From assembly GCA_903813345.2 (NCBI GenBank), contig CAIIXF020000001.1, positions 35,373,366-35,437,365 of the forward strand: a stretch of 64,000 nucleotides of DNA, read 5' to 3'. Shown here in pieces: positions 8,631-64,000 of this stretch; the first letter of the stretch is position 1; the number at the start of each line of letters is the position of its first letter. The notes beneath the pieces were generated by a model. That model did not search any database, was not told where the DNA came from, and worked only from the letters and a program-made list of their open reading frames with translations. Both the position numbers and the translations under genes were made by a program. The DNA is from Owenia fusiformis. Its lineage: Eukaryota > Annelida > Polychaeta > Sabellida > Oweniidae.

Positions 8631-8713
8631 TCCCATGGATAGCATCTGTCGTACCTCATTATAGGAATTCCTCCACTTGAACAATATAGCTGGAATAATA
8701 TGTATATAAGACA

Positions 8714-8719
8714 AATAAA
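8714..8719 (+). terminator. Polyadenylation signal of ATP6V1F
   Basis: AATAAA, 84 bases after the stop codon, the first such hexamer downstream of it. Use is inferred from position. Confidence 0.6.
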
Positions 8720-10079
8720 AGCAGCGTTCTCTTCAGCAATTCATTAACTGGGTGTTGCACCTGGTTGATAATTCAAAGTTACCTGTCTGTCACCCACTTG
8801 AAAAATCCTTTTGCACATAAGGACATTCCTCACCTGTACAATGGAAATTGAGAATTTTACACCCACTAGTTGAGATAAAATACAATGAAGAAGACCAGGA
8901 TGAATATTGTGTATAAATACTACACTGTGTATAAACCAAATAGCATATAGAATAGATCATGGACATGTGTAGACGCACATTTCAATATTGTTGGCACATG
9001 CAAATTGCAAAACTAAACATCCTCCTAGCATATGTACAGAATCTGTTCCTTCTTCTTGATCTAGGAAACCCTATATTCGGAAAATAAGAGTTATCAGAAG
9101 ACTTATGTCTGAACTGAATTTATGTTTTCAATTTTAAATGGTGATTTAATCCAGCACCTACACTGTACACTTATAATTAATTGTCTGGATTGGAGAGAGG
9201 GCTCATGTTGCATTATTTAGTCGATTAATATCTCAAAGACAGAAGTTCATCATCATCATAAAATTTATTTTTAAATGACAGTTAAATCCAATACCCACTG
9301 TGTATACAGTACTTATGATTGATTGGCTGGATTAGAGGGCTCATCATAAAATATTATTTTAGAATATAAAATGGTTTTCATGATTTGAGATTTGCTGTGA
9401 ATCGTTACTCCGTGGAGTTAAGTTGTTATAAAGAAGTCTTGAGGCAGACTCATGGTGTGCGATCTGTGATTTATGGTTGTTGTTTGCCATCTCATCATCT
9501 CTAATTTATGATCTTTGTGGGTGATAATTACAGGTTGATAAAGAATTGATAGCATTATGTGACTTAAACTTTTGTGATGTTATTACTTCCGTTCAGAAAA
9601 TTAGTAGACTGTCAATGACCATAGACCAAGATGAATGTCCTATGAAGGTGAAGAGAGACAATGACCTTGGTCAATTGCAGTAAAGTCTCTATATGAATCA
9701 CTGCAAGTTTGACATCTTTTTAAGATGAATACAGTTTTGAAAAGGTTTTCTGAGTTAAACAATTCACCAGATACAATTTTCATTAATTTCCATGTGAGAA
9801 ATGACTATGTGCAGACTGATTATAAGTTTAATAGTTTAAAGACCAATCTAGAACTTGTTTCACTTACATAGGTTTTAATGAAGATGTAGATGTGGGTAAT
9901 GTAATAGCAATAAATCAAGGTCATGAAAGTTAAGTGGGATTTACTGAAAAGGAACTTGAATGATAAATGATTGGAAATCTTGCTATATCATTGATCATTT
10001 GCTGATCTTCCAATCATTTCTTCCACTTATCAATGTCAGTTTAACTTCCTTGTGCCTTAACCTGTGACTCTCTGATACA
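8720..10079. other. No gene seen
   Basis: Only short decayed repeats: segments near 9140-9200 and 9270-9340 resemble each other (ATCCA..ACCCACTGT..TAATTGATTG..CTGGATTAGAG type). A 50-codon frame after an AG at 9534 is listed among the rejected items. Confidence 0.4.
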
Positions 10080-23600: not shown

Positions 23601-26600
23601 CAATATCACCCAAATATCAAGCAAATATTGGCCCAATATCAATCCAATATCACCCAAATATTAGCCCAATATTATAGCAATATCACCCAAATATAAGCCC
23701 AATTCGATAGCAATTTCTGACAAATATCAATCCAATATTAACTTTATATCTGCCCAATTACCAACATATTGCCATTACATAAGCAATATCAAAAAATATA
23801 AGTTCTGATATCAACCTAATATCCCAACAATCTCCTCCCAAATCAAACTTATATTACCTCAATCACTGTGGCTAGTCGATCTATGTGGATGCAGTCAGGC
23901 ACATGTAATGTTTCGTGAGTACCCGCCTCTGTACTTTTCAATGGAAGAATTTTGCACTTCTGTTTAAATAATCTATATTTACTCATCCGTGTATATCATA
24001 CTTCATTGATTTACAAAACCAAAGCTACGCTATAAACACACATTCTCTGATATTTTTACGGAGAATAGATAACTCAAACGAGTTCATTCGACCAGTTTTA
24101 TCATCTCGCTCATAGCTGTGAGAAGGTATGTATAAGTTGCCATAGGTTTACCTTATAATGGGGAATAAAAATTCAAGTAATATAATTATTTCACGTACAC
24201 AAATATGTCTGTGTGAAGTAAAATACAAATACAATGCGTTTTATAATATTTTTGGCGTTATGGTATGAAATATCCGTTTTAAAAAAGCAATTTGATTATG
24301 ATGTATCATGTGGATTAGTAGACGTTCTTAATGGATTCAATGAACAGACTGCCTAGGTTTTAATTGAATCATTTTGAATGTGTGTTTTTTTAATAATTTA
24401 ATCCACAGTGTCCAAGAACAATAAAAATGCTATATTGGAAATTGGAAAGATTCCACTTACCACGATTTCAAAAAAATTGTAAATAGATAATATTATTCTT
24501 GAATTTGGGTCATTTGTTTCAAGGAATCTATAGGCTCGTTCAGCTGAGCTGACAAAATCATCAAGATTTACGGATGGTCTATCTGTTGGCTGCTCATTGT
24601 CACTTTTAAGGAATGTTAATGGCTCTGAAACGTGTAGCCTTGCCCAGGTCGGTATTTAGTTACTTATTTGATATTGAATTAATAGCACCTTGTACAATCC
24701 AAGATCCAATCCGAGATTCCCATAATACCTACGCTACCTAAGGTTATCGCGAAACATTATTAATTGACAAGATCGCATGGACACGACCTTTGACTTCAGT
24801 CTGGTTGACCAATCAAAATGTTATCTGTTCTGATCGAGTGTTTCTTGAGAGTTACAATATATTATGTTATTAAATGTACATTGGAATGTAAGCAGTCATT
24901 AATACATTAATGACTGCTTAATTTAATTAATGGCATTAATGACATCACTGCGATGATTTTTGAATGTTTTGCTAAGTTCCGGTAGTTCCCAGTGTTCCCA
25001 ATATCTCTCACTAGGGTGGCACATGGGGCAGCGTAAAGGGGACAGTCAAACAGAAAATGAGAGATATTTGAAAGTCAATAAGATGATAAGAAAATCGCTG
25101 AGCATTCAAAGCACTAAGACCCATACGAATTCGAGAATGATTGATTGATGATCTGCTTGCCTTTCAGGAAAATAGTGGATTTTTGGGGTTGCAATGGAAT
25201 AGTTTGTATTTGTGTTTGAAAGAGGAAGGTAGCTGATGCTTTTGAGTTCTTTGCTTAGATTGTTCCATTTATTTAAAATATAAGGTAAGAAGGAGGAGGA
25301 GGTCATTTTTAATCGGCATTTGGGTAACCTAAAATCATGGATGTTTCTGAGTAAATATCTTTGTTGGGGGTTTTGGATGAATGGTTGAATCAGGTCACTT
25401 AGGTATTGGTGTGCATTTTTATTAGAAATTTTATGAAACAGGAATAGAGCATGCATTTCTCTTCTTTTCTTTAATGTATCCCAGCCGAGCTCTTTCAAAA
25501 TATTATTGTAGTTAGTGTGTCTATAAGCTCTGGTACATATAATTGCTGCATCCCTCTGAACTTTTTCTAAGATTTTGCTTTGGTTGTCAGTACAGTTATT
25601 GTATATGACATCACAATATTCTAAGACAGATCTTACCATCGAAAAGTAGAGAGTTTCCAAGTGTTTTTTTTATCAAGATTGTATCTAAAAGCTGATATTT
25701 TTATTAGGGATAGGCGCCGATTTGCTTTTGAGGCAAGTTTATTTATATGAGAGTTCCAGTTCATTTTGGACTGAAGAGTTAGCCCTAGGTGACAATCTTT
25801 TCGACATTCCTCAAAATGGTATTGTTTAAAGTTAAATCAGGGTAAAGAAATTTGTTCTTTTTCAGAGTTATGGTCAAAAGTTTTGTCTTATTTGCGTTAA
25901 AAGTAACTTTCCATGTTTTGGACCATGCTTCCAGGCGTGCTAAATCACGTTGTATCTTATTTGTACTGATTAATGGGTCTGATACAATCTCCATTAGAGA
26001 TGTATCATCTGCAAATAAGTTAATATCTGTTTCCATTGATGCTACTATATCATTAATATAAAAAAAGAAATAATAAAGGGCCTAATATAGACCCTTGAGG
26101 AACACCAGCTTCAAACGCCAATCTGATTCGATTCCATCAATAACTACCCGTTGTTTTCTATTTGAAAGGTAACTATCTATCCATTTCATGAGTTGGCCAG
26201 AAATCCAATGCATTTGTAATTTGAAAATAAGACCACGGTGCCAAACTTTATCGAATGCCTTGGAGATATCTAGGAAGTCAAGAAGAATTTATTTTTGATC
26301 ATCTAAACCATTATAGATTTTGTTCACTAAGTTTACTAACTGATTCACAGCTGAGTCAAGTGGTTTGAAACCAGAGCTTTTGAGAGTCGGTATGTTGTTT
26401 ATTAAACAAAATCTATAAATAACATTAAAAACAAGACGCTCAAAAACTTTGGAAATGCAAGAAAGTAATGAAATTGGCCTGTAATTTCCCTTGATTTGTC
26501 TATCATCTTTTTTGAAAATCGGCGAAACATTTGCTTCTTTCAAGGTTGAAGGAAATATTCCAGTTAAAGAGAATGGTTGAAAATACCGCATAAGGATGGT

Positions 26601-29600
26601 GCAAGTCCTAATGCACATTCTTTTAAAAGTTTATTTGAGACATTATCTGGACCATTTGATTTAGATATATTGAGAGAAGAAAGGACTTTAAATACTTCAT
26701 GCTCTTCAAATTGAATTAAATCAAGTCTTGCATTAGTAATATATGTCAAGTTTGGAAGAGGCGGATCATTTTGATTAAGTGGTAAGATAGTTTGGTCGGC
26801 GAAGTAGTTATTCAAAACGTTTGCCTTGGCTTTAATGTCAGTAATTATAACATCATCATTTTCAATGAGAGGAGGTATACCTCTTGAAATTTTTGAGCCA
26901 TATAAATTTTTCAAAATAGTAAAGTATAATTTAGGTGAGGTTTGATTGTCGGATAATTTTGTTTTGAGTGAATTAGTATGGTCATTTTTTTGCTTGGATG
27001 ATTGCGTGTTTAACTTCGGTTCGTATTCTACAAAATTTCTCATGATCATTTAAATTGCTAGATATTTTGAATTTATAATGAAGAGAATTCCTCTGTTTAA
27101 TGAGACTTTTTATTTGTTTAGTCATCCAAGGTTTGTCTCTGTTTGAAACTGTAATGATATTTCTGTGTACATACAATTCACACAGGACCAAAATACCATG
27201 TACCAATCTCGAAGAATGTCATCTATGTTAATGTTGTGAAAATAAATTACCTCCCATGGTAAGGAGAGAAGATGGTCGCCTACAAGCACAAAGTTTTTGT
27301 TTTTGTAGTCAAATATTGTTCGTTTATATGTAAGTTTTGCTTCACGCTTAAAATTGAGTGTGCCAAAAATGAAGCAGTGGTCAAGATTTGCAAGTGGTTC
27401 ACCTACCCCTGTATTCAAATAAAGCTGGGGAATCTGTTATTATAAGATCAAGAATAGAGTTACCTCGAGTCTGTGTTTGGATCATTTGATAAAGATTGAA
27501 ATGAGAAAGTAAATCAACAAGTTTGTTGCTAAATTCGCTTTGATTATGTTGGGAGTCCCATGAAGTGCAAAAGTCATTAAAATCACCCAGGACAAGAGAA
27601 TCTGGTTTCAGATTCACTACTTCATTCAGATTTTCAGATAAAAGATCAATAAAATGGTCAGCCTCAGTTTGGTTTATTCCTGGAGGGCGATAGCAAGTAA
27701 ACTTGATTTGTGGGTATTCCAGTGGGTTGATGGGTCTTTGGCTCTGAATTCACTTCATAGGCGTACCTGGTTTCAACATTTTCATTGTCATCGTTACATG
27801 TTATGGACCCTGTTTTTCAAATAAAAGTATTAGGGATAAAACCATAGTTTTTTCATCTGTAATGGCATTTTCCAGTTGATGGGTTTATATAAATTATTTT
27901 CAATTCTTCATGAGGCGGGTATCTTGTAATGGTGTGGCTAATCACTTTACTGAGTGAGGAATGTTTATTCAAACAATGGATACAAAGAAATCTGGCCAGT
28001 TGTCCATCAGTAAATAAATCATCATGATTAAAGTATAATTTAATATAGCATCCATTTGTTACCGTTCTGAATCCAAATGATACATAGTGGCATCCATTTT
28101 ATACATATATGTTGACGTTTACGAAATGTTTTTCAAATATCTTCCCTATAACAGGAATATGGAAGCTGAAACTTTCACACATTGTCATACTATGTATATT
28201 GAATATGTACGCAAGATTTCAAGTCACTATATTAAGTAGAAACTCTGAGATCACTCACTTCGATTTGCTGTCATTTTTTTGCAATGATCCCATTCCCTAT
28301 AATGTACGCGAGTACCCACGATACATTGCATATAAATGATTGCATCCACATAGATCGACTAGCCACAGTGTCAATATCACTTCTATTATTAGTTGCAATA
28401 GTCTTGACTTGTGAAGCTAAATCTTCTGTAACCTTTCTCCGTTTTCTAGGAGAATTTACCTGCTTCCTACATATGCAGCATGAATAGCATTTGGCCATTT
28501 TGAATAATCAACAAAAATGGCAGGCAAAATTTTCTATAAAGTTCTAAAATTCACATCGAGCATAATAAGTCTCCATCAAAATTATTCTTTGTATGCAACA
28601 ATATAACATTTATGTAACTAAAGAAGCACTTATTAGAGTGGAGACTTGTTATGCTCCATGTGAAAACACTCAAAGGATTACTACCTCCAGTGAATAAAAA
28701 TGTCACCCAGACTCAGCATGAAATGTCCTTTCAAAGCTTTACTTACCTCTAAACTGTACATATTGTTTAAATCAATTGTATGTATGGATCAAATAAACAT
28801 TCATTCATAGCTGAGTAAATTGGAATTCATCAAGAGGGTTGTAAAATATGTGAATTTTTTTCCTTCTGGCCCCCACCCTCTTTGAAGGTCTCCAGACACC
28901 GTAACAATTTTTTCTAAATTTTTTAAAAAATACTACCCAAAAACATAGACTTCAATCTATGCATTTATGATGTTTTTTTCTCCTATTCTTAAAACAAGTT
29001 TTTTCACACTTCAATTGGGGCACTCTCTGTTGCTAGTTTACCCAACTCCTTTCTAGCAGAAATTGCCTGCTCCCCCCCCTCCGTCCCAATTCTACGATCA
29101 CCGGGCGTGTATGTATTCAACTACATAGTCCTATGAATGTAAATGCTGACTTGTCACATCTTGATAGAGACCAAATAAATAAGAAATACATACATACTTA
29201 GTGGGACATTTTTATTTGAAAAGGTAACATGGGGGTACAGCAGGTCACAAAGGAGATACAAGTCTGTCAAATCAAAAGAATCATATCATTCTATTTGTGT
29301 CAATATCAAATTATCAATACATGTCTAAATACTGAGCAATATATTGAGCATAATTATATTCTTAATAGAAATCAAAAGAGAATACATGTGAAAAGGGTAT
29401 TGAGGGCAGTGATTAAAAAACAAAATTACCTGAGCATGTCAATGAACTTGTGGAGTTCATGCACATACTGAATTTGTACACTTAAAATTAAAGTTCATCT
29501 ACAGGACATGAGTATTACTTGAAAGAATAACATTTAGCATGATGAAATAAAGAAACCATATAAATAAAAGGCCCACAAAAGAAGGAGAACTGGATATGAA

Positions 29601-32600
29601 ATAATGTTTATTAAAAAATAACTTCCACAAATTACAAAATCTCTTACGTGATGATTTCTGATTTGAATGAATCGAGGAAACTAGAACAAAACTTGTGACT
29701 GGAATACATTCTTCTATATTATAAAGCTTACCATTAATCATGTGGAAAGAATTTTTGTTTGTATTAAAGGTGACTTTACCAATAGCTATGGGCTACTTGG
29801 AGCCATCTATTGGCCAGGCTTTAGATGTAATGAGTCAGACATTTACAAGAAATACCACTACAACTCTTGTTGTGCTCTCGCTAACTTTGGGGCTTGCGAG
29901 CATACTTCGTGCATACTTATCAGCAACACAGTCAATTCAGCTGTTCATTGTATTAGTGAACTCAAAGAGAGATCTAAAGAAAGCAATTATATTTCTCCTA
30001 ATCAATGGTACCATAACAGGTTCAATACTTCTTATGATATACTTAACACCACTAGGGATAGTTATTCAATGGATATTCCATATTACTGATGTGGAATTAG
30101 CTGAAGTTCGATTTGGTGTGGCAACTTGGTGCCTACAGCACATAATCCTGAACATAGCGAATGGGCTTTATGGATTACTGCTAAAACATAAACATACACA
30201 CTTCTGCATATCATATGAAATAGTTAAAACTGTTCTTAAGATATCATAATTTTTTGCACTAATGGGAACAAGCATACTGACGACAAGACCAATTTTGATA
30301 CCTACAATATCAGTGTACATTGCTTGTCTTGGGTGTTTATTGATCAGCATCATAGGATATAGGATATACCTGAAGGATACATTACCTGTTCAAAGTTCAA
30401 ATGATGTAACCTATGGTCAAATGATACGATTTACACTTCCTTTAGGAATGCAAGAACTTGTTCTAAGGAGTGAAGTTTTCATTATTTCCATAGTGTTATC
30501 TCAGATCACAACATCAAGCTCTGAGAGAAGCAGTGTGTTAGCTTCATTTCAGGTTCTTTATGCTGGTTTTATGCCATTGAGGCGATTAGTTGATATGCTA
30601 ACACAGACAGTTGCAGTATATCTGTCATCAGGGATGAACAGACATTCCCATTTTGATATTGAACTTGCAATATCAATTGTGATCATCATATGTTTCCTTT
30701 TTGCTATAACCACATCCATATGTTGGGTAGAACCTATTACTAAATTCATATTTCTTATTTTCATGCATACTTCCCAATCAAACTTGAATATGCTGCAGTA
30801 TCCACTCAAAATGTTCACATTTTGGCCATTCATACATGGACTTAACTCATTTTTAATAGGTGTTTTGCTACACAAAAAGGATACAAACATAGTGTTTGTT
30901 AGTTCAGTATGTAATGTGGTTATACTCAGTTGCATTCCCTTTTTATTTAATCTTGTTGAAATGGACAAAATACTCTCTGCAGTGGTGTCATTGTTTTTAT
31001 CAATTACTGCAACTGCATTAATATTACTAGTCTACATGTGTAAGAAATATTTGTTTGCACATGAATATCATGAACACATGGCATAAACATTTATTATTGA
31101 AATACATTTTAGGCTAACACATGAGGCCCTAATGTCTATTGCTAGGTGTAAGGTGTCATTTTAAAAGTCCTGATAAACAATCAACTAAACTTACCATCAA
31201 AGCGTTCACTGACAGCTAAATCTGCTATGTGTGCCCCAGCTTGTTTGGCAGTTCGGACCTTACTGGACCACTTTGGTGTGTAGTTCATGCAACAACATGA
31301 CATACTTTGAGAGAGTTTACTGGCATTCCTCTTCAGGTGGGTTGTAGGAATCACACCTAAAATGCAGTTATGGAGAAAGGAATGAGAAAGTACACATTGT
31401 AACATTTGAAAAAGAAAATACTGTACTGATACAAAATATCCAAAATAAAAATTACAGGCAAGCAATTTGTAGATTTAGGCTTAGTTCCCACAAGTTACAT
31501 ATAGAACTTGGTCGTCATTTAAAGCCAAAGCCAAAACCTGTAGATGAACGTTTATGTAATATTTGTGGTATTTTAGAAGATGAACAACACTTCATCATGA
31601 TTTGTAAGAAAAACACTACAGAAAGAAAAAATTTGTTTGACACCCTTACACAATTTAATTTTGTAGGCAGTCCTGACATTATTTTTAAAAAACTAATGTC
31701 TCACAAAAATTCTTATGTAATTTTACATTTAGCAAAGTTCATCTATCATTCACTCAAAAAATTGGATTAATGTGTCAACGATGCATCACACTGATGTTTA
31801 AATTTCTGTCAAGTTATATTTGTATTTTATAATTATCTTGTATTCTGATGCTGTCCCCAGCTCCGATTTCGGTGATCGGCTAGTAAAAAAGGTTTGAGGG
31901 TATCATTTTGTTCCAGACACTCTCTAGAGTAAATTATCCTAACTTGAGTAAAAATGTGTGGTAAGTAAATTCACTATGGGCAGTTAAAGAGGCGCCATCT
32001 ATTCATTTTCAAACAGGGGGTAGGGGTATTAAATAATTTTTAAAACATTTTAATAGTAAAATGACATTGAAATACTAATAAAATCTTATCAAAAACATTA
32101 TTTACAATCAGTATGAATTTTCTTGTGTGAATTAGGGTGAAAATAAGGGCATATTTTTAAATTCACTACAGGGGCGCCACCTATTTTCATACTTCTACCA
32201 CGTGTAATAACTTATTTTAGATTCGTTAAGGTACGAAATGTACTGAAAAAATTCATTCTGAAGGACCTATATATGTTCATACCACATACTCAAAATTGGA
32301 TCAATAGGTTTTGAACTGGCGGAGAAAAAAATTATTGAAATTTAAAATTGTGGCATCTTGCAGGATAGGGGTGACCATATCTCACATGATTAACTTCCAA
32401 AATATGGAGCATATGTATCTCAAATGTACTCAAAATGGTGTATGTACTCTTGCTTTGTCATAATATTACTAATAAGAAGTAGAAAAATGATTGTACATTT
32501 TAAAAAATATTAATTCTCATTTTGGCTTCTGACGTCCCAGGAGTGACCATATCTCACCTTAATAACTTCCAAAATATGGAGCATATGTATCTCAAATGTA

Positions 32601-35600
32601 CTCAAAATGGTGTATGTACTCTTGCTTTGTCATAATATTACTAATAAGAAGTAGAAAAATGATTGTACATTTTAAAAAATATTGATTCTCATTTTGGCTT
32701 CTGACGTCCCAGGGATGACCATATCTCACCTTAATAACTTCCAAAATATGGAGCATATGTATCTCAAATGTACTCAAAATGGTGTATGTACTCTTGATTT
32801 GTCATAATATTACTAATAAGAAGAAGAAAAATGATTGTACATTTTAAAAAATATTGATTCTCATTTTGGCTTCTGACGTCCCAGGGTTGACCATATCTCA
32901 CCTTAATAACTTCCGAAATATGGAGCATATGTATCTCAAATGTACTCAAAATGGTGAATGTACTCTTGCTTTGTCATAATATTACTAATAAGAAGTAAAA
33001 TAAAAAATTGTACATTTAAAATAATATTGATTCTCATTTTGGCTTCTGACGTCCCAGGGGTGACCATATCTCACCTTAATAACTTCCAAAATATGGAGCA
33101 TATGTATCTCAAATGTACTCAAAAAGGTGTATGTACTCTTGCTTTTTCATAATATTACTAATAAGAAGTAGGAAAATGATTATACATTTCAAAATTTTTA
33201 ATTTTAGCTTCTTACGTTCCTGGGTAATCATATCGGACCATATAATAATAATCCTCAAATATTCTCAGAAAAGTCCTGTCTTTTTCATATTACTTATGAA
33301 ATGTAGAAAAATGATTGCATTTTTTTTATAAATCTTAATTTTAGCCTCTGGTGTCCCAGGGGCTATCTCATCTTGATAACTCTCATGAAAATTTCAATTC
33401 AAAAAAGGTGTAATAATTTTTTCTACATCTCATGAATAATATTATGACAAAGCAAGACCATATGCCCCATTTTTGGTATATTTGAGTTGTATATGTTACA
33501 TAATTTCAGAAGTTAGTGAGGGACGTCAGAAGCTAAAATTAAAATTTTTTAAACGTATAATCTTCTTATTAGTATAATATTATGACAAAGCAAGAGTACA
33601 TACACCATTTTGAGTACATTTCAGATACATATGCTCCATATTTTGGAAGTTATTAAGGTGAGATATGGTCACCCCTGGGACGTCAGAAGCCAAAATGAGA
33701 ATTAATATTTTTAAAAATGTGCAATCATTTTCCTACATCTTATTAGTAATATTATGACAAGACAAGACTATATACACCATTTTGAATACATTTGAGATAC
33801 ATATGTTACATATTTTGGAAGTTATTAAGGTGAGATATGGTCAGTGGTCATCCCTGGAACGTCGGAAGCTAAAATGAAAATTAATATTTTTAAAATGTAC
33901 AATCATTTCTCTACATCTTATTAGTAATATTATGACAAGGCAAGACTATATATACCATTTGAGGCTTTTTGAGCATATTTGAGATACAAATGCTCCATAT
34001 TTTGGAAGTTATTAAGGTGAGATATGGTCACCCCTGGAACGTCAGAAGCCAAAATGAGAATTAATATTTTTTAAATTGAACAATCATTTTTCTACTTCTT
34101 ATTAGTAATATTATGACAAAGCAAGAGTACATGCACCATTTTTAGCACATCTGAGATACAAATGCTCCATATTTTGGAAGTTATTAAGGTGAGATATGGT
34201 CACCCCTGGAACGTCAGAAGCCAAAATGAGAATTAGTATTTTTTAAAATGTACAATCATTTATCTACTTCTTATTAGTAATATTATGACAAAGCAAGAGT
34301 ACATACACCATTTTGAGCACATTTGAGATACATATGCTCCATATTTTGGAAGTTATTAAGGTGAGATATGGTCACCCCTTGGACGTCAGAAGCCAAAATG
34401 AGAATTTATATTTTTTAAAATTGTACAATCATTTTTCTACTTCTTATTTGTAATATTATGACAAAGCAAGAGTACATACACCATTTTGAGTACATTTGAG
34501 ATACATATGCTCCATATTTTGGAAGTTAATCATGTGAGATATGGTCACCCCTGGGACGTCAGAAGCCAAAATGAGAATTAATATTTTTTAAAATGTACAA
34601 TCATTTATCTACTTCTTATTAGTAATATTATGACAAAGCAAGAGTACATACACCATTTTGAGCACATTTGAGATACATATGCTCCATATTTTGGAAGTTA
34701 TTAAGGTGAGATATGGTCACCCCTGGGACGTCAGAAGCCAAAATGAGAATTTATATTTTTTAAAATTGTACAATCATTTTTCTACTTCTTATTAGTAATA
34801 TTATGACAAAGCAAGAGTACATACACCATTTTGAGTACATTTGAGATACATATGCTCCATATTTTGGAAGTTAATCATGTGAGATATGGTCACCCCTATC
34901 CTGCATGATGCCACAATTCTAAATTTCAATAATTTTTTTCTCCCCAGGTACACAAGCTATTGATCCAATTTTAAGTATGTGGTATGAACATATATTGGTC
35001 CTTTAGAATTAATTTTTTCAGTACACTTCGTACCTTAATGAATCTAAAATAACTTATTACATGTGGTAGAAGTACGAAAATAGGTGGTGCCCCTGTAGTG
35101 AATTTCAAAATATGCCCTTATTTTCACCCTAATCCACACAAGAAAATTCATACTGATTGTAAATAATGTTTTTGATAAGATTTTATTAGTATTTTAATGT
35201 CATTTTACTATTAAAATGTGATAAAAAATTATTTTATACGCCTACCCCCTGTTTGAAAATGAATAGATGGCGCCTCTCTAACTGCCCATAGCGAATTCAC
35301 TTACCACACATTTTTACTCAAGTTAGGATAATTTACTCTAGCTAGTGTCTAGAACAAAATGATACCCTCAAACCTTTTTTACTAGCCGATCACCGAAATC
35401 GGAGCTGGGGACAGCATCATTCTGTATTTTAAAATTGATGATGTAATTAGAATTGTATTTGACAACAACTTTATTTTTGTATTCAATAGTTAGTTTAGTC
35501 TTAGGTCAGTTTTTGTAGATTGTAGTTTTTAGTGACTAATATGTCATTGTAATGACATCAGAGAGTCAATAAAAGATATATATACTCTTGGTTAATATCA

Positions 35601-38600
35601 TGAAATTTGAGAAATCGTAATTTCGCAGCTATTTTTCGCGGTATCCACAAGTTCAAATTTCATTATTCTCTGAATCCTTAAGTTTTGCAAACTAAGTCAC
35701 CTTTTATACAGTAGTTACATTCAATCCAGTGTAATATTTTGATAAAATTTATAATTACTAGATCTTGAAGAACAGTAGGCTGCACCCCAACCTCTGTTAC
35801 TTACATCGCCATTTTTGGTCTAATTGATCATTGCTTAATATCCCATTCATTGCCCAATAACATTTGACACACATTTTACACAGAACGAAATGAGTCCCAG
35901 GTCATAACAAATCCCCGGGGATTTAATTTGCGAATTTCACGACGATTATTTTACGCGATTTTACTACAATCGCGAAAAGCGTGAAACTAATTTCGCACAC
36001 AAAAAATACAGGGAGTACAGTAGCACAAACTAACATACAAATCATGTCAAACCTAATTCTAACATAAAGCATATAAAATACATATACGTACAGTATACTT
36101 CAAAAGCCAAGTATTCAAATTAGTGGGTAAATCTGATCTTAAATGGTCTGCAACTTGACATTTACTTTCTTAATCCTGAAAATATCTAAGTTTAAATATG
36201 GTAAGTTGATCTACAAGTAAGCAGTTTGATAAGTTCCTTTGGGCCCTCACATTTGTTCAATGTAAAAGCAATTTATTCAACTTCTGTGAGCAATCTTTTC
36301 ACTAAAATTGCTCTTATTTGAATAATTTTCATCCAATTTACACAGAAATTGTTTTAAGATGTGTAGAAATGATCTCAGCCATCTCGTTTTACTAAATTGA
36401 TACATCTAAAGTTGTATAGGTATGTAGTTAATGTCAAAAGGTGGCAAAAATGAAAAAATCTCTGGTATGGTTTCAACTGATTTAGAGCCTGGGATTCAAG
36501 AGGTTAATGTAGATATTATCTTTGAAATAACCCAAGAGATAAAATTCCAGGGGTTCAGATTGTGTGATTTTGGTACATTCAGCATTTGGAGCAGTTTTTG
36601 TAAAATCACAACAACTGATAATAGACCAATGAAGCTCAGTAGAATGAAAGAACATAAAACAAGGTTTAAATGCACCAAGTATAACTTTAAACACATGCAA
36701 GATGACTTGGGTTATAACATTTGTTTTGGTTACATTTTTGGCTCACTATGTACAAGCCAATTTCTAATTTATGTTAAACAAGAAGAAGGAGTAGAGTCAA
36801 AATGATTTGATTTTATTGTAATATCACTGGTAGATAATGAAAGTACGAAGCTAATTATACAATAAAATGTTTAAATTAAAATGACTGATAATTACCTGGA
36901 TCAACTGTATTAACACGTACATAGGTATTATGTAATTTCTCCGCAAGTTTAAATGTGAACAGCACATTGCAGAGTTTTGAATTCTTATAGGCTTGTAGAC
37001 CATTGTAAGAGCCTTCTTTCTTCAGTGTGAAATTCTCTGGATCTAAGAAACCAATTCCTAAAATGGTTTCAGATAAGGAAGATAAAAACAAAACACAGTT
37101 GAAAATAAAGTGACTGAAATTGATATTGGTATACCAATAAACTCCATCACATCTGTCCTAATTAAATAGGATAATTAATATATTTACTTACTGCCAAGTA
37201 TTCAGGTAAAATGATATTGAAGTTAGCTATGGCTATGCAAAATCTTCTGGACCTATATCCATAGATAAAATGTAGACCACCATGTACATGCTATTCATGA
37301 TTCAAGCTGACAAGAGAGAAAAAAATAAATGAATTTCATAAAAATTATGACATGGGTCTCTTGTTATTTGCTGTGAAATCAAAGGTCATATTTTGCATAT
37401 AAAGAAATACAACATTAAATGTTGCAGTTATGTGAGTGAAAATGACACAAATGAAGAGGACAAATCTGATCAAAGTACATGTATACTACAATGTATGCAT
37501 ATTTTTGACAATGGCAACACTGTACATACCTCTCATGAGCAGACCCCCATTTTCATGATCATGAAGGCCACATGTGACATTTACAATCCTAGCATCTCCA
37601 GTAATCTCACCAGCTGTCTTAAGGTAGTCTAGAACCATATTGGTCAACAGGAAGTGACCTAAATTAAACATATTAATCTGCTTTAACAAAAATTCCAAAA
37701 ATTCCTACATATGTTCATCTAAGCATGTATGTATTATCACTTTCTGACCAATTATGTAGTATAGTCATATTATATTAGATCACTGGTTTATAAAACCATC
37801 AATTTTGACAAATTTTGAAATTTAAGGCCCATTTTCTTCTTCTGGGCCCATCCTAGGGTGGGTGTGGGATCAAGGAGGGGGGATGGACATTTATGTTCTG
37901 GGTGCCCCTCCAGATCCTCCAGTGATAAGCTTATTTCAAACCAGAACAACGGCAACGCCAAAGCGTAGCGAATCCCATCGAACAGAAATGGCTGGCATTT
38001 TTACAAACGAATAGCAAATATCATAAAACAACACAGCAGAAAGGCCACCATTTTCAAAATGGTTGCTCACTAGCCAAGTTGTCATCAGAAGAAATAATAT
38101 GCTTTTAAGTAGCCACCTCTAAAATTTTTGAAAAATCTCACACATACTTGTAAAATTACACACATAAAAATGGTGGCCATTTTTCAAAATGGCCAACTAC
38201 TCCCCAAATTTTTATTAGACAATGTGCCATGCTTAAAGTATTCACATATCAAATATGAACAAAATCGCTCCACTACTTTTCGAGTTATAGTAAAATATGT
38301 TAAAATGGCGGCCATTTTTCAAAATGGCCACCGTCTACCAAAAGTGTCATTAGAAATAGACAGTATGCCATGCTTATAGTATTCACATACCAAATATGAA
38401 CAAAATCACTCCACTACTTTTCGAGTTATAGTAAAATACGTTAAAATGGCGGCCATTTTTCAAAATGTTTTTCAAAATGGCCGCCTTCTACCAAAAGTGT
38501 CATAGGACAGTGTGCCATACTTATAGTATTCACATACCAAATATGAACAAAATCGCTCCACTACTTTTCGAGTTATAGTAAAATACGTTTTCAATTTTTT

Positions 38601-40290
38601 TTTCAAAATGGCCGCCTTCTACCAAAAGTGTCATAGGACAGTGTGCCATGCTTATAGTATTCACATACCAAATATAAACAAAATCGCTCCACTACTTTTC
38701 GAGTTATAGTTAAATACGTTAAAATGGCCACCTTCTACCAAAAGTGTTTTTAGACAGTGTGCAATGCTTATAGTATTCACATACCAAATATGAACAAAAT
38801 TGCTCCACTATTTTTTGAGTTATAGCAAAAATCGTAAAATGCAAGTAAAGGCCGCCATTTTTCAAGATGGCTGCCATGTGCTTCTTTAATATCTACATTT
38901 GTAGCATTATTAATGTCCTTTATAATTTTTTTACATTTAAAACATATTGCTATTACAGTTTTACATATTACACCTAAATTACTGTAAAATCGGCACTAAA
39001 ATGGCCGCCATTTTGAAATGAGCGGCCATTTTGAAAATCAGCTTTCGAGCAGAACTTCTACCCCCATAGGGTATATGTGTACAAAATATGAACAAAATTG
39101 GGCCAACGGTATTTGAGTTATTGCCCGGACGGACGGACGGACGGAGGCGTTCCCTATATCCCTCCGAACTTCGTTCGATGGGATAAATATAAATGGAATA
39201 ACTTGTGGCCAAAAAATTATTTTTTGGACAATAAAAATGTTGAGATGAGGCAAGCTTTTGAGACACTAATGAAAAAACTTAGTACTATATATTTATTTAA
39301 ATACAGGAAATGCTTTGTTACAGTGTCAGAGATGGTATTGCTTGCACTTCTTTAAGCACAACCTGAGCACTTATAACTGGGCGCTTTGTCAAATACGGTT
39401 GGTAGTGAATGTCTAAGTAAAATCATATGAATTGATTTAAAGAATTAAAACGTTTTTTACTTCCACCTTAATATCTGATTGAAATTTGTCCCAACAATTT
39501 TGAGAAAGAACATTAAAGTATTACAGAATACAGACGCTTACCTAAGTGGTTGGTTGCCATAACATACTCAAGCCCTTCACTGGTACATCTCCTGCTGAGG
39601 TCTTTGAAATTAGGTGCCATACCTGCATTATTGATCAGGACATGTAGTCTCCTTTTCTTTTTGGTAAAGATTTTCACAAATTCCTTCACTGACTGCATAC
39701 TGGACAGATCCAGCTGAAAACAAAGTTCAGCTCTTACTAGTATAGGTAGTACTAGTACTAGTATAGGTTGGAATGGAATAATATTTGTAAAATAAATTCT
39801 TGTACAGTATCACATAACTTCTATCTAGAGGGACCATACAAATATGAAAAACTGGTCATAATATATTTTCATATTCTAAAATCAAAGTTAAAGCAAAATA
39901 CTAGTAATACAGTTATTTTAGTTATAGAAAAATATTAAAACTAACATTAAATTCAAACACTATATGTTTGCATGAAATCAATTGTAAGATTTAGCCTTTG
40001 AGTAAACCTAAAGAAGATGGCCAATATTGTGATCAAAACACTGCACAGTTACTTTCAAGCACGAAGGTCAAAATTTGTTTTTCATTGTAGGCTTCATGAA
40101 TATTACCCACCTCCATGAACTCAATTAAAGCATTTGGCCATTTTGCTTGTATCCTAGCACAGGCTTCATCTCCCTTCTCTCTATCTCTGCAGGTTATGAC
40201 AATATCATGGCCTCCCTCAGCTAGGTGCCTTGCAGTCTCAAATCCAATACCAGATGTCCCCCCAGTGATGAGAATAACACGACCAGACAT
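20523..40290 (-). CDS. Short-chain dehydrogenase/reductase, RDH/WWOX-like (six coding exons, complete)
   Basis: An NAD(P)-dependent oxidoreductase of the classical SDR fold, closest by eye to retinol dehydrogenases 11-14 and the WWOX catalytic domain. Exons, 5' to 3' on minus: 40,290-40,111; 39,713-39,542; 37,658-37,530; 37,057-36,896; 31,356-31,195; 20,674-20,523. All are GT-AG and join in frame to 318 residues, the usual family length. Cofactor motif TGGTSGIG at 9-16, NNAG at 88-91, YKNSK at 184-188 (catalytic Tyr and Lys). The family's catalytic Ser position (VNVSS) reads VNVTC, so Cys147 replaces Ser. No N-terminal membrane anchor is seen, unlike RDH12. The C-terminus keeps GKYFRDG. A CAG acceptor just 5' of the ATG (at about 40,297) suggests an upstream non-coding exon. 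Introns 4 and 5 are swollen by transposons. The substrate is unknown. Confidence 0.92.
21416..21593. mobile_element. Mariner/Tc1-type MITE, 178 bp
   Basis: Ends CAGTAAAACCT and AGGTTTCACTG, each flanked by TA (21,414-21,415 and 21,594-21,595). The inside repeats GGTGTTCCACTT in both orientations, as in the related 16,386 element. Confidence 0.75.
22031..22035. repeat. Target site duplication TATGT (left)
   Basis: Matches 29,110-29,114 exactly and abuts the CAC terminus of the 7-kb element. Confidence 0.75.
22092..22806. repeat. 0.7-kb foldback palindrome inserted in a transposon terminus
   Basis: Two ~355-bp arms (22,092-22,456 and 22,458-22,806) are inverted copies with many scattered differences. 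The centre at about 22,457 has AGCAATATGTAT facing its complement, beside GGGACGGAGGGGG and its complement. The outer ends read TTCAACAAATCTG and CAGATTTGTTGAA, with GAAA on both sides as a possible 4-bp duplication. Confidence 0.8.
23270..23850. repeat. AT-rich degenerate tandem tract (AATATCACCC type)
   Basis: About 580 bp of loosely repeated CCAATATCACCCAAATAT-type units of roughly 20-30 bp, highly diverged. It lies between the palindrome and the Transib-like element, downstream (on minus) of the donor of the broken exon. Confidence 0.75.
24461..24655 (-). CDS. Exon-like frame inside the Transib-like element
   Basis: 65 open codons on minus, containing WARLHVSEPLTFLKSDNE and later DFVSSAERAYRFLETND, ending IYNFFEIV directly before a consensus donor (GTG/GTAAGT at 24,460). 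Composition and the sharp donor suggest a genuine exon, perhaps a remnant of the element's own gene or a captured host exon. I do not recognise the protein. No acceptor is clear at the 5' side and no partner exon was found. Confidence 0.4.
24890..24919. repeat. 14-bp perfect hairpin
   Basis: AAGCAGTCATTAAT at 24,890-24,903 pairs exactly with 24,906-24,919 around a 2-base loop. It lies in the Transib-like element near the LINE 3' side. Function unknown. Confidence 0.6.
25106..27740 (-). pseudogene. Decayed jockey/CR1-like LINE (endonuclease + reverse transcriptase)
   Basis: Pieces of an ORF2 protein in the right order on minus: endonuclease end with CYRPPGINQTEA (about 27,690) and LVLGDFNDF; the linker PWMTKQIKSL; RT motifs NVSPIFKKDD and NYRPISLLS (26,450-26,560); AGVPQGSILGPLLF (26,070-26,105); LFADDTSL with the catalytic Asp pair (about 25,995-26,020); the region SMVRSVLEYCDVIY and KVQRDAAIICTRAYR; then the C-terminal tail to 25,106. 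Frame changes and stops occur several times, for example directly after GPLLFL before the IND motif. The 5' part of the endonuclease is missing. It is a dead copy inside the Transib-like element. Confidence 0.85.
28371..28498 (-). pseudogene. Broken exon with Cys-rich N-terminus, cut by the Transib-like insertion
   Basis: On minus an ATG at 28,498 opens 42 codons beginning MAKCYSCCICRK, then a basic patch (SPRKRRK) and EDLASQVKTIATNNRSDI, before the frame meets the transposon end at 28,370. Across the insertion, after one copy of the duplicated pentamer, the next base (23,858) completes a Glu codon and is followed at once by a good donor (GTAATA, 23,857-23,852). So the intact allele would have had a 43-codon exon 1. 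Cys4, Cys7, Cys8 and Cys10 could bind metal, and the basic patch could be a nuclear localisation signal. I do not recognise the protein. It lies inside the 7-kb element and may be the start of that element's own gene. No further exons were found. Confidence 0.55.
28553..28664. repeat. 112-bp inverted-repeat element
   Basis: The ~23-base ends (CACAT.GAGCATAATAAGTCTCC and its complement) pair with two mismatches. It sits just upstream of the broken exon's ATG. Confidence 0.55.
29740..31086 (+). pseudogene. ANKH-like (progressive ankylosis family) multispan transporter, one in-frame stop
   Basis: A single uninterrupted frame of 449 codons (ANKH is 492 residues) starts at ATG 29,740 (MWKEFLFVLKV) and ends at TAA 31,084. 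One TAA at 30,247-30,249 breaks it after residue 169. Both halves align in order with the ANKH family: LVNSKRDLKKA, GLLLKHKH, then after the stop ILIPTISVYIACLG, LPLGMQELVLRSEV and multiple hydrophobic spans. ANKH is a MATE-like multispan protein linked to ATP/citrate and pyrophosphate export. The copy has no introns, lies in intron 5 of the dehydrogenase gene on the opposite strand, and shows no poly-A tail or flanking duplication I could see. With no frameshifts it is either recently inactivated, read through, polymorphic, or a sequencing error. Membrane location is inferred. Confidence 0.8.
31195..31356 (-). CDS. SDR exon 5
   Basis: Encodes VIPTTHLKRNAS to ERFDG, including an unusual MSCCCMNY stretch. 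Acceptor GCATTTTAG, donor GTAAGT. LINE-derived sequence begins only about 100 bases upstream of its acceptor. Confidence 0.9.
31456..31770 (+). pseudogene. LINE ORF2 C-terminal fragment (zinc-knuckle end)
   Basis: A 104-codon open frame plus TAA: RQAICRFRLSSHKLHIELGR, then LCNICGILEDEQHFIMICKK. The CxxC..H..C arrangement after an R-x-R..H-L-x-x-E-x-G-R lead is typical of the C-terminal domain of animal non-LTR retrotransposon ORF2. The 5' part is absent, so it is a truncated copy. It begins about 100 bases from the acceptor of SDR exon 5. Its 3' untranslated tail is split by the foldback element and resumes at 35,424. Confidence 0.75.
32371..33230. repeat. Tandem array, ~172-bp unit (left arm)
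   Basis: Copies of GACCATATCTCAC start at about 32,373, 32,544, 32,717, 32,889 and 33,062, a spacing of 171-173 bp. The innermost copies toward the centre are more diverged. Confidence 0.9.
33500..34895. repeat. Tandem array, ~172-bp unit, inverted (right arm)
   Basis: GAGATATGGTCA recurs at about 33,660, 33,831, 34,019, 34,192, 34,363, 34,534, 34,707 and 34,879. One unit, near 33,840, has a duplicated GGTCA. The array is longer than the left one, so the arms are unequal. Confidence 0.9.
35424..35590 (+). repeat. LINE 3' tail, resumed after the foldback insertion
   Basis: Continues the 3' untranslated region of the 31,456 fragment and ends AATGACATCAGAGAGTCAAT, then AAAAGATATATATA. A near-identical tail at about 2672-2698 shows that it is the family's 3' end. 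Confidence 0.65.
35591..36895. other. SDR intron 4 remainder, no other gene supported
   Basis: Includes an ATG-started plus-strand frame of 124 codons (36,431-36,805) that resembles no family known to me and has no splice context. No repeat structure was recognised. Confidence 0.35.
36896..37057 (-). CDS. SDR exon 4
   Basis: Encodes the active-site YKNSKLCNVLF and the VNTVDPG strand. Acceptor CCATTTTAG, donor GTAATT. The span between Cys147 and Tyr184 is about 12 residues longer than in RDH12, closer to WWOX. Confidence 0.92.
37530..37658 (-). CDS. SDR exon 3
   Basis: Completes GHFLLTN and encodes VNVTCGLHDH, where the expected catalytic Ser is Cys. Acceptor TAATTTAG, donor GTATGT, phase 1 at both ends. 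Confidence 0.92.
37937..39187. repeat. 1.25-kb AAAATGGCGGCC-rich element with short inverted ends
   Basis: The left end (CGTAGCGAATCCCATCGAAC) and right end (TTCGTTCGATGGGATAA) share an inverted AATCCCATCGAAC. The inside has about six loose copies of a ~120-bp unit with AAAATGGCGGCCATTTTTCA and TATGAACAAAATCGCTCCAC, and ends with five GGAC repeats before the terminus. Further copies: 60,628-61,239 (5' part), 17,660-18,182 and 40,970-41,187 (decayed). It lies in SDR intron 2. Confidence 0.75.
39542..39713 (-). CDS. SDR exon 2
   Basis: Begins LDLSS after TTTTCAG and ends in phase 1 before GTAAGC. Carries the structural NNAG motif and ends ATNHL, followed by a split Gly. Confidence 0.92.
40111..40290 (-). 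CDS. SDR exon 1 (coding start)
   Basis: 60 codons from ATG at 40,290, phase 0 end, donor GTGGGT. Contains the dinucleotide-binding TGGTSGIG and the CRDREKG stretch that sets cofactor preference. The acceptor-like TTTTTCAG six bases 5' of the ATG supports a separate 5' UTR exon. Confidence 0.92.
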
Positions 40291-42812: not shown

Positions 42813-43019
42813 TTCTTAGATGAGATTGTTTAAGAACGTAAGGTAGACATAAGTGCCACCTGTTAAAAGCTAGGAGATCTTTTCTAAGTTATTAAGTCAT
42901 CAATCAGCAGACTGGTAATTGTATCCCCCACCCACTTCAAACTCCATACACTAACATACTATTACAATTTAAAATTAATTTTATCTGTGTTTATTTGACT
43001 GTAGAAGGTGTACATTCAT

Positions 43020-44016
43020 AGCATTGAATTGCATTTCATTGCATTGTATTGTATTGTATTGTATAGCACATCATTGTATTGTATTGCACTGCGTTGTATT
43101 TTATTGCAGTATATTGTACTGTATTGCACTGTATTATATTATATTGCACTGCATTGTACTTTATTGCACTGCATTGTATTGTACTGCAGTGTACTACATT
43201 GTATTGCACTACATTGTATTGTATTGTACTGCATTATAATGTATTGCACTGCACCACATTGTACTACACTGCATTGTTTTGTATTGCACTACAATATATT
43301 GCACTGCACCATATTGTATTGCACTGCATTGCACTGCACTGCATTGTATTATATTGCACTGTATTATATTGCACAGTATTGTTTTGCATTGTCTTGAATT
43401 ACACTGCATTTTATTACACTTCATTGTATTTTATTGCACTGCATTGTATTGTACTGCAGTGTACTGTATTGTATTGCACTGCATTGTATTGTATTGCACT
43501 GTATTGTATTGCATTGTATTGAATTGCACTGTATTTTATTTCATTGCACTGCATTGCACTACATTGTATTGAACTGCGATGTATTGTATTGCACTGCATT
43601 GTATTGCACTGTACCACATTGTATTGTACTGCATTGTATTGAAATGAACTTCATTGTATTGCACTGCACGACATTGTTTTGCATTGTATTGCATTGCACT
43701 GCATTGTATTGCATTATATTGCACTGTATTATATTGCATCGTATTGCACTGCATTTTATTGTATTATATTGCACTACATTGTATTGTATCATATTGCACT
43801 GCATTTTTTGCATCATATTACACTGCTTTGTATTGCATCATATTACACTACATTGTATTGCATCATATTGCACTGCATTGTATAGCATCATATTGCTCTG
43901 CATTGTATTGCATCATATTGCACCGCATTGTATTACATCATATTGCACCACATTGTATTGCATCATATTGCACTGCATTGTATTACATTATATTGCACTG
44001 CATTGTATTGCATCAT
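43020..44016. repeat. 1-kb pentanucleotide satellite (ATTGT/ATTGC/ACTGC)n
   Basis: About 200 copies of a 5-bp unit (CATTG, TATTG, CACTG in mixed order). Towards the 3' end (43,800-44,010) a longer unit of about 30 bp, CATCATATTGCACTGCATTG plus flanks, is superimposed. All long frames here on both strands (Cys/Ile/Leu/Tyr-only proteins) are artefacts because the period and variants avoid stops. Confidence 0.95.
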
Positions 44017-60581: not shown

Positions 60582-60627
60582 CTGTAATAGATAAATTGAA
60601 ATTAAAAAGATAAAAAAAAGTGTATTA

Positions 60628-61239
60628 ACCAGAACAACGGCAACGCCAAAGCGTAGCGAATCCCATCGAACAGAAATGGCTGGCATTTTTACAAACAAAA
60701 TATATAGCAAATATCATAAAACAACACACCACAAAGGCCACCATTTTCAAAATGGCTGCTCACTAGCCAAGTTGTCATCAGAAGAAATAATATGCTTTTA
60801 AGAAGCCACCTATAAAATTTTTGAAAAATCGCACACATGGCCCCATTTTAACGTAATTTACTATAACTTGAAAAGTAGTGAAGCGATTTTGTTCATATTT
60901 GATTTGTGAATACTCATGAGCCTTGCACACTTGTCTCATGACTATGCTTATAGTATTCACATACCAAATATGAACAAAATCGCTCCACTACTTTTCCAGT
61001 TATAGTAAAAACGTTAAAATGGCGGCCATTTTTCAAAATGGCCACCTTCTACCAAAAGTGTCTTTAGACAGTGTGCAATGTTTATAGTATTCACATACCA
61101 AATATGAACAAAATCGCTCTACTACTTTTCGAGTTACAGCAAAAATCGTAAAATAACGAGAAAAGGCCGCCGTTTTTCAAGATGGCTGCCATGTGCTTTT
61201 TTAATATCTACATTAGTAGCTTTATTAATGTCCTTTTAG
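60628..61239. repeat. AAAATGGCGGCC-rich element, 5' part, cut by foldback copy 2
   Basis: Matches the 37,937 copy from its left end (ACCAGAACAACGGCAACGCC) up to TATTAATGTCCTTT, where the second foldback begins. Confidence 0.8.
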
Positions 61240-64000
61240 TGCTGTCCCCAGCTCTGATTTCGGTGATCGGCTAGTATAAAAGGTTTGAGGGTATCATTTT
61301 GTTCCAGACACTCGCTAGAGTAAATTATCTTAACTTGAGTAAAAATGTGTGGTAAGTAAATTCGCTATGGGCAGTTAAAGAGGCGCCATCTATTCATTTT
61401 CAAACAGGGGGTAGGGGTATAAAATAATTTTTAACACATTTTAATAGTAAAATGACATTGTAATACTAATAAAATCTTATCAAAAACATTATTTACAATC
61501 AGTATGAATTTTCTTGTGTGGATTAGGGTGAAAATAAGGGCATATCTTGAAATTCACTACAGGGGCGCCACCTATTTTCGTACTTCTACCACGTGTAATA
61601 ACTTATTTTAGATTTGTTAAGGTACGAAATGTACTGAAAAAAATCATTCTAAATGACCTATATATGTTCATACCACATACTTAAAATTGGATCAATAGCT
61701 TATTTACCGGGGGAGAAAAAAATTATTGAAATTTAAAGTTGTGGCATCATGCAGGATAGGGGTGACCATATCTCACATGATTAACTTCCAAAATATGGAG
61801 CATATGTATCTCAAATGTGGTCAAAATGGTGTATGTACTCTTGCTTTGTCATAATATTACTAATAAGAAGTAGAAAAATGATTGTACAATTTCAAAAAAT
61901 ATTAATTCTCATTTTGGCTTCTGACGTCCCAGGGGTGACCATATCTCACCTTGATAACTTCCAAAATATGGAGCATATGTATCTCAAATGTGCTCGAAAT
62001 GGTGTATGCACTCTTGCTTTGTCATAATATTACTAATAAGAAGTAAAAAAAAATGATTGTACATTTAAAAAAATATTAATTCTCATTTTGGCTTCTGACG
62101 TTCGAGGGGTGACCATATCTCACCTTAATAACTTCCAAAATATGGAGCATTTGTATCTCAAATATGCACAAAATGGTGTATATAGTCTTGTCTTGTCATA
62201 ATATTACTAATAAGATGTAGGAAAATGATTGCTCATTTTTAAAAATATTAATTCTCATTTTGGCTTCTGACGTCCCAGGGGTGACCATATCTCACCTTAA
62301 TAACTTCCAAATTATGGAGCATATGTATCTCAAATGTACTCAAAATGGTGTATGTACTCTTGCTTTGTCATAATATTATACTAATAAGAAGTAGGAAAAT
62401 GATTATACATTTAAAAAATTTTAATTTTAGCTTCTGACGTCCCTGAATAACTTCTAAAATTATGTAACATATACAACTCAAATATACCAAAAATGGGGCA
62501 TATAGTCTTGCTTTGTCATAATGCTATTCATGAGATGTAAAAAAATTATTACACCTTTTTTTAATTGAAATTTTCATTTTAGCTTCTGAATCTGACATCC
62601 CAGGGGCAATTATATCTCACTTTGATATAACTCTCACGATATGCATTATATGCATCTCAAATGCGTGCCCAAAATGGTATAAATATAGTCTTGTTTTGTC
62701 ATATTTATTGGATTTATGAAATCAGAAGTTCAGAATTTATGGATTTGACTGTCTCCCCTGAAGGGTGCAGCTACATATAGCCCAGAGACAATAAGATCTA
62801 CTTTCAAATATTTGCATCTTCTCCCCAAACACTCCTTATATTACAGGAACAATGGACGATAAGTCTTTTGCATGCCTTGGATGCAACATCTTTTGTATAC
62901 TGGTAGCCTATCAGTAGTGTGAGTAGCCTAGCCTCATTTACAAAAATTGGCCCCTTAACCCCAAATCTGACCCGAAATTTTGAAAACATCCTGAAAAATT
63001 AGGCCTAAAAGGCGCATTTATGCCCAAACATACACCAAACTGTCCCACTGCTAAATTACAAGGGCGATAAGTCACTTCTAATCCTGATTGACCTTCTCAA
63101 TGCATGGTTTGTCATGTTGTGCTATATTGTTATTGCCCATTCTCAACAATTGTATTCACTGTATGGCCTACCGTGCCAAGAATAATGCAATTGTTCCAAA
63201 AGCTAAGCTCTTCTTTGGGACCCTAGAAGTGTGGGACATCACAATCATAGATTAATATTTCATTACAATCAATGTATGTTGTATGACAAACATGCAAACT
63301 AGAGAATGTTAATGTGGCTAGAAAGATTTATCATTACAAAGAGCTCATTTTCCCATATTTTACATACTCAAAATCCCTTAATTCAGTGTATAATCCAAGG
63401 TGCATATATTGCAGGCCACAGGATAACATATTAACACCTTACATTAGCAGTTGCCATTACTTCATAAATGGAGTAAAATACTCCCACTATCGACAGGCTA
63501 AAAGGATTCCTGTATGGATTACAAAAGATGTTGGGTCCAATGTATGCAAGGGAATAATCTCATCCATTGTACTTGTAAAGGGTGTTTGGGGAGCAGATGC
63601 AAATATTTGAAAGCAGATATTATTTGCCCTGAATTATATGTAGCTGTAGAGGAGACAGTCAAAATCCATTGATTCTGATCTGTTGATTTCATGATTCTCA
63701 ATAAATATGACAAAACAAGACCATTTTGAGCACACATTTGAGATGCATATGTTGCATATCGTGAGAGTTATCAAGGTGAGATAGCCCCTGAGACACCAGA
63801 GGCTAAAATTAAAATTTAAAAAAATGCAATCATTTTTCTTCATTTCTTTAGTAATATGAAAAAGACAGGACTTTTCTGAGAATATTTGAGGATTATATGT
63901 TACGTATCTTAGAAGATAATTATATGATGCGATATGATTACCCTGGAACGTAAGAAGCTAAAATTAAAATTTTTGAAATGTATAATCACTTTTCTACTTC
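61240..64000. mobile_element. Foldback element with 172-bp arrays, copy 2 (runs off the window)
   Basis: Left end TGCTGTCCCCAGCTCTGATT and the ~520-bp outer arm match copy 1 closely. Then come about six 172-bp-type units (61,770-62,720), a central ~950-bp region absent from copy 1, and the inverted array resuming at about 63,700 to the window edge. The centre is itself palindromic: 62,750-62,890 pairs with 63,510-63,660 (AGGAGACAGTC outside; AAATATTTGCATCTTCTCCC-type inside). This is probably the more complete form. It sits in a PRIM2 intron. Confidence 0.85.

What the first reader, a model, noticed from the sequence alone, without database searches (positions are those of the whole stretch)
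23864..28370. Transib/RAG-like element with 30-bp perfect ends starting CACTGTG
Seen: exact 30-bp inverted ends and an exact 5-bp duplication TCAAT. Known: Transib and RAG-like transposons make 5-bp duplications and have CACWRTG terminal heptamers resembling recombination signal sequences. Inference: this is a non-autonomous relative mobilised by such a transposase. Intact ends and duplication imply a fairly recent insertion.
Basis: partly seen in the sequence, partly recalled or inferred. Interest (0 to 1): 0.75.

Follow-up and report, generated by a model that had tools for sequence, protein, structure and literature searches.

The report
Deleted copy of a YqaJ transposon
The stretch is a recently moved, gutted copy of a 9-kb jumping gene: its ends resemble those used by the antibody-gene recombinase family, but its full-length relative encodes an unrelated giant protein with a YqaJ-type nuclease, a kind of DNA transposon that we could not find described.

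Summary
In detail: 23864-28370 has 30-bp perfect ends starting CACTGTG, an exact TCAAT duplication, and 359 near-identical ends genome-wide. It is a non-autonomous DNA transposon, but the Transib/RAG filing fails. A validated Transib probe finds nothing, RAG1-profile hits lie in a family with other ends, and duplications are AT-rich. One relative (C6:5362210-5371450, 9,241 bp, same ends, duplication TTTAA) holds a nine-exon gene, open over 1,345 codons, with a zinc-finger-like N-terminus, a complete YqaJ nuclease domain (E = 3.8e-12) and a C-terminal region with RNase-H-transposase-like motifs. The window element aligns with this element's two ends and first exon (90-95% DNA identity) and lacks the rest. 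A 5'-truncated LINE later inserted into that exon region and travelled with the element (13 LINE matches of 93% or more). That the giant protein is the transposase is inferred. Against it: one full copy only, no terminal repeats found around six related genes, no profile or structure match for the RNase-H-like region. Four literature searches gave no description; Repbase and animal genomes could not be searched.

The parts
23859..23863 (.). target-site duplication TCAAT, left copy
23864..23926 (+). left terminal inverted repeat, 63 bp (first 30 bp perfect), starts CACTGTGGCTAGTCGATCTATGTGGATGCA
23864..24399 (-). arm equal to positions 9241-8705 of the full-length C6 element (93.9%)
24399..24399 (.). 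internal-deletion junction: C6 position 905 joined to 8705, about 7.8 kb missing
   Evidence: same junction in L008 and L004
24401..24634 (-). 3' part of exon 1 of the giant protein (residues 103-180, 92.3% aa identity)
24635..24905 (.). remnant of a nested insertion of about 0.5 kb inside exon 1 (515 bp in L008; target overlap 14 bp; its two ends form an imperfect inverted repeat of about 60 bp); the window copy has lost its other part
24906..27698 (-). 5'-truncated, decayed non-LTR retrotransposon (LINE) with endonuclease and reverse-transcriptase remains, inserted in the 0.5-kb insertion with an 11-bp duplication AAACTTGATTT (both copies seen in L016; uninterrupted in L008)
27402..27749 (-). 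open frame with endonuclease domain PF14529 (E = 1.3e-9); the frame runs past the LINE end into the host transposon
27699..28370 (-). arm equal to positions 1-676 of the full-length C6 element (90.4%)
27700..27990 (-). 5' part of exon 1 (residues 7-104, 76.8% aa identity), with the zinc-finger-like LCIHCL motif
28308..28370 (-). right terminal inverted repeat, 63 bp
28371..28375 (.). target-site duplication TCAAT, right copy

Best explanation
The element is a non-autonomous, internally deleted derivative of a 9.2-kb cut-and-paste DNA transposon, of which one full copy lies in the same genome at C6:5362210-5371450. Shown: shared ends and arms, shared deletion junction with other short copies, mostly 5-bp AT-rich duplications, a split exon 1 of the giant gene in the window copy, and a LINE that inserted into the deleted element and was then multiplied with it. 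Inferred: the giant spliced protein of the full copy (zinc-finger-like N-terminus, YqaJ PD-(D/E)XK nuclease, C-terminal region with D..DGQ..DxxH..E motifs that suggest an RNase-H-type transposase) binds the CACTGTG ends and cuts and joins them with 5-bp stagger; short copies keep only the ends and are moved in trans; the YqaJ nuclease would process ends or remove donor DNA.
For: C6 positions 1-676, 673-905 and 8705-9241 align with window 28370-27699, 24631-24399 and 24399-23864 at 90.4, 94.9 and 93.9%; L008 and L004 share the 905/8705 junction. C6 copy: 63-bp ends, duplication TTTAA. Nine exons with 8 of 8 GT-AG introns, no stop in 1,345 codons (in I chose the exon 5 donor and moved the exon 7 end by one base to keep the frame); YqaJ E = 3.8e-12 over 149 of 150 profile positions across three exons, against 1e-5 for the one exon that matched. 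Exons colinear with single-frame proteins of 1438, 1467 and 1221 aa elsewhere. Exon 1 frame kept in old sister copies; dN/dS 0.29-0.59 in 7 comparisons; 17 loci with stop-free frames of 177 aa or more over at least 138 of 145 residues (150 of 586 candidates scored). Interior C6 sequence recurs at 8 other loci, among them L009 and the old sister L036.
Against: Only one full copy was found, so its activity is unknown. Six related genes elsewhere show no convincing terminal repeats or duplications in the flanks fetched, so the gene family could be a host family. No Pfam or PDB match for the RNase-H-like region, and its first acidic residue is not kept in L050 (STLER for SDLDR). The C-terminal end of the gene was not determined. 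Exon 1 dN/dS compares mostly dead copies and 72-230 codons.
Confidence: 0.78

Rival explanations
1. A Transib or RAG-like transposase mobilises the element; the C6 gene is only cargo.
For: CACTGTG fits the Transib/RAG heptamer and duplications are mostly 5 bp.
Against: Validated Transib probe finds nothing; RAG1-profile hits belong to a family with other ends; AT-rich duplications. The searches could miss an intron-split or very divergent gene.
Confidence: 0.07
2. The YqaJ gene is a captured host gene in the C6 copy, and the true autonomous element is unseen or extinct.
For: One full copy only; six relatives without visible terminal repeats in the flanks fetched; short copies do carry a zinc-finger piece and LINE cargo.
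Against: Exon 1 of this gene is in old sister copies (L037, L039, L041) and in the short copies compared, and 8 other loci share C6 interior, so a capture would have to predate the family. No other transposase-like frame was recognised in the C6 element.
Confidence: 0.17
3. hAT5 or another known superfamily with 5-bp duplications supplies the transposase.
For: hAT5 makes 5-bp duplications (PMC12730594, passages).
Against: No hAT domain in the Pfam scans of the C6 protein or two relatives; the genome was not searched for hAT transposases, so a trans-acting one is untested.
Confidence: 0.05

Closest known systems
Transib / RAG-like (RAGL, ProtoRAG) transposons
   Same: CAC..GTG ends fitting the heptamer; mostly 5-bp duplications.
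   Different: Encoded protein (YqaJ, no RAG1 or Transib match), AT-rich rather than GC-rich duplications, no AAA at end positions 8-10.
ISL2EU group of the PHIS superfamily
   Same: Autonomous members carry a YqaJ exonuclease (PMC4482050, passages).
   Different: There YqaJ sits in a second frame beside a THAP/DDE transposase and duplications are 2-bp AT; here YqaJ is inside one giant spliced protein and duplications are 5 bp.
[quoted passage not shown]
   Same: 5'-CA..TG-3' ends, short duplications (PMC12730594, passages).
   Different: The C(2)C and H(3-4)H motifs between second D and E were not seen by eye in alignment A1.
hAT5
   Same: 5-bp duplications (PMC12730594).
   Different: No hAT domain in the full-length relative's protein.

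Membership tests
Transib | heptamer-like CAC end | tested here: met
   CACTGTG; the CACWRTG consensus is from the finding and recall
Transib | 5-bp target-site duplication | tested here: met
   21 of 27 exact 5 bp, 3 of 27 6 bp, 1 of 27 4 bp, 2 of 27 none exact
Transib | GC-biased duplications | tested here: not met
   15 of 105 bases G or C in the 21 exact 5-bp duplications; window 34%; p = 7e-6
Transib | full-length copy encodes a Transib transposase | tested here: not met
   C6 copy encodes a YqaJ protein; no Transib match in the genome (control)
RAG-like (RAGL) | RAG1L gene with these ends | tested here: not met
   RAG1 profile: 3 hits below cut-off, one family, other ends; RAG2L was not searched
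CACTA/EnSpm | 3-bp duplication (recalled; 2-4 bp for CMC in PMC4482050) | tested here: not met
ISL2EU (PHIS) | AT 2-bp duplication, YqaJ in a separate frame | tested here: not met
hAT5 | hAT transposase | tested here: inconclusive
   no hAT domain in the C6 protein; a trans-acting hAT was not searched for
RNase-H-type (DDE) transposon, superfamily unnamed | RNase H fold with DDE | tested here: inconclusive
   motif spacing only: DGQ 957-959, DxxH 1337-1340 and E 1412 of the L048 protein invariant where present; first D not invariant; no structure was predicted

The most novel reading that the evidence does not exclude
A new superfamily of animal cut-and-paste DNA transposons: CACTGTG ends, AT-rich 5-bp duplications, and one giant spliced protein fusing a zinc-finger-like end-binding region, a YqaJ PD-(D/E)XK nuclease and an RNase-H transposase, whose ends imitate recombination signals without any tie to RAG.
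Probability: 0.45. Interest if true: 0.75.

Novelty: new variant of a known kind. Interest (0 to 1): 0.6.

Why it matters
If the giant protein is the transposase, two nuclease modules (YqaJ and RNase H type) sit in one polypeptide, which raises the testable idea that YqaJ processes ends or destroys donor DNA. It also warns that CACTGTG ends plus 5-bp duplications are not enough to call an element Transib or RAG-like; lists of 'RAG-like' short elements made on ends alone could contain this kind. The short copies are very similar (many 95-99%), so the system may still be moving, and it shows how a deleted transposon can spread a trapped LINE.

Tried and rejected
RAG1 Pfam profile: led to a separate family, about 5.4 kb with a 726-729-aa frame and ends CATATCGAGATTTT; not the partner. 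Its distant relatives with DUF1280 (L033-L035): ends, where found (L034), TAAATATCTCAAATGCC; not the partner. Odd-end search: 6 places, of which L027-L030 were fetched and C10:18693138 later (L037); they led to older sister copies, L030 only to a 21-bp end remnant. Larger TIR pairs L011-L015, L018, L025, L026: nested insertions, no transposase-like frame recognised. LINE as an encoded function: rejected, nested insertion. Viral contigs: no relative of the YqaJ or RNase-H-like regions. hhalign of the C-terminal profile against the RAG1-like set: probability 0.05%. Terminal repeats around six relatives: none convincing (an 18-bp pair in L052 has no matching duplication).

Full report
WHAT IS IN THE WINDOW. 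Positions 23864-28370 carry inverted ends identical over 30 bp and 86% alike over 63 bp, inside an exact TCAAT duplication. The window is G000:C1:35373366-35437365 of a 498-Mb eukaryotic genome. The 30-bp end with at most one mismatch occurs 180 + 179 times there, the reversed control 0 + 0 times. First-look candidates were 449 for the left and 441 for the right end (40 scored in each).

COPIES. I fetched 16 copies with two ends by position and others later. Arms of the copies compared are 87-99% alike. Pairs of ends in the first 100 places are most often about 3.0 kb apart, others 1.8-2.5 kb or longer. Of 27 elements compared, 21 have an exact 5-bp duplication, 3 a 6-bp, 1 a 4-bp, and 2 none that is exact. 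The 21 exact 5-bp duplications hold 15 G or C in 105 bases, against 34% in the window. They tend to start with T and end with A.

LAYERS INSIDE. The minus strand of 24906-27698 is a decayed LINE (RVT_1 pieces E = 4.5e-6 to 8.6e-4, endonuclease E = 1.3e-9). L008 has the uninterrupted site and L016 has the LINE between two copies of AAACTTGATTT: a 5'-truncated LINE landed in an already shortened element. Its middle has 13 matches of 93-100% over 95% or more of the query (40 of 70 candidates scored), 11 of which lie within about 9 kb of a right-end match, so the LINE was multiplied by the transposon. The LINE itself sits in an older 0.5-kb insertion in exon 1 (L008 773-1287).

THE FULL-LENGTH RELATIVE. 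Following the minus-strand frame of the right arm led to C6:5362210-5371450, 9,241 bp, with 63-bp ends and duplication TTTAA. It aligns with the window element at 90.4, 94.9 and 93.9% in three blocks that cover both arms and exon 1. L009, a 1.8-kb copy, is a different deletion of the same architecture: it also keeps C6 7114-7505 and 7700-8373, including a zinc-finger gene on the opposite strand. C6 interior also recurs in the old sister L036 (78-81%) and at six further loci.

THE GENE. Nine exons joined by eight GT-AG introns give 1,345 codons without a stop. The exon 5 donor and the last base of exon 7 were chosen to keep the frame; the 3' end was not found. Pfam sees a complete YqaJ domain (E = 3.8e-12), stronger than in the one exon that matched alone (1e-5), which supports the joins. 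The exons are colinear with proteins of 1438, 1467 and 1221 aa at three other loci, and three more loci have related pieces. Conserved residues in seven rows include the PD-(D/E)XK set (D703, E726, K728 of the L048 protein), DGQ at 957-959, DxxH at 1337-1340 and E1412 (five of the seven rows are pieces put together). The order D..D..DxxH..E is what an RNase-H transposase with an insertion domain would show; that reading is mine. The first D is lost in L050, no profile or solved structure matches the region, and a profile comparison with RAG1-like proteins of this genome gave nothing.

NOT TRANSIB. The RAG1 profile gave three hits of one family; in the two copies whose ends were compared the ends are CATATCGAGATTTT. 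Duplications are AT-rich, whereas ProtoRAG, Transib and RAG favour GC (PMC8289069, passages; PMC11844651, passages). Searches of this genome can miss weak or split genes, so a hidden Transib is improbable rather than excluded.

HOW IT WORKS. Shown: family, ends, duplications, deletions, LINE co-mobilisation, gene model. Inferred: the C6 protein is the transposase and moves short copies in trans. Constraint on exon 1 (dN/dS 0.29-0.59 in 7 comparisons) and its presence in old sister copies argue that the gene belonged to the transposon from early on. Against this stand the single full copy and the six related genes without visible ends.

LITERATURE. Searches for YqaJ with transposon terms listed no such element; the nearest is ISL2EU, where YqaJ is a separate frame (PMC4482050, passages). 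PMC7826175 (passages) counts YqaJ domains among expanded domains in a clam and reads them as viral. The library lacks most subscription papers and Repbase Reports.

Noticed in passing
L020, L021, L022 (C8:5.76M, C4:30.07M, C1:15.86M): Family of about 5.4 kb with a 726-729-aa frame in two copies, weakly RAG1-like (Pfam E = 0.0013, PDB RAG1 E = 4.5e-4), ends CATATCGAGATTTT; another RAG1-like DNA transposon of a different kind.
   Followed up: partly
L033, L034, L035: Two-frame elements: a cysteine-rich protein like the RAG1 N-terminus (resemblance recalled) and a 656-667-aa protein with DUF1280 (E = 1.9e-17 in L033); L034 has 26-bp ends TAAATATCTCAAATGCC.
   Followed up: partly
window 32367-33194, 33562-34897, 61758-62426: The same tandem unit of about 172 bp in three arrays, one of them in opposite orientation.
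   Followed up: no
window 43013-44016: About 1 kb of CATTG/CACTG-type short-unit satellite.
   Followed up: no
window 38167-39194 and 60623-61214: Repeats matching about 0.8 kb of intron 2 of the C6 transposon gene at 80-93%, so that intron carries a common genomic repeat.
   Followed up: no
L009 interior and L047:3642-4073 (minus): Four-finger C2H2 protein encoded opposite the YqaJ gene inside the transposon; role unknown.
   Followed up: partly
L015: A second, different LINE (RVT_1 E = 2.6e-7) nested in another copy of the family.
   Followed up: no
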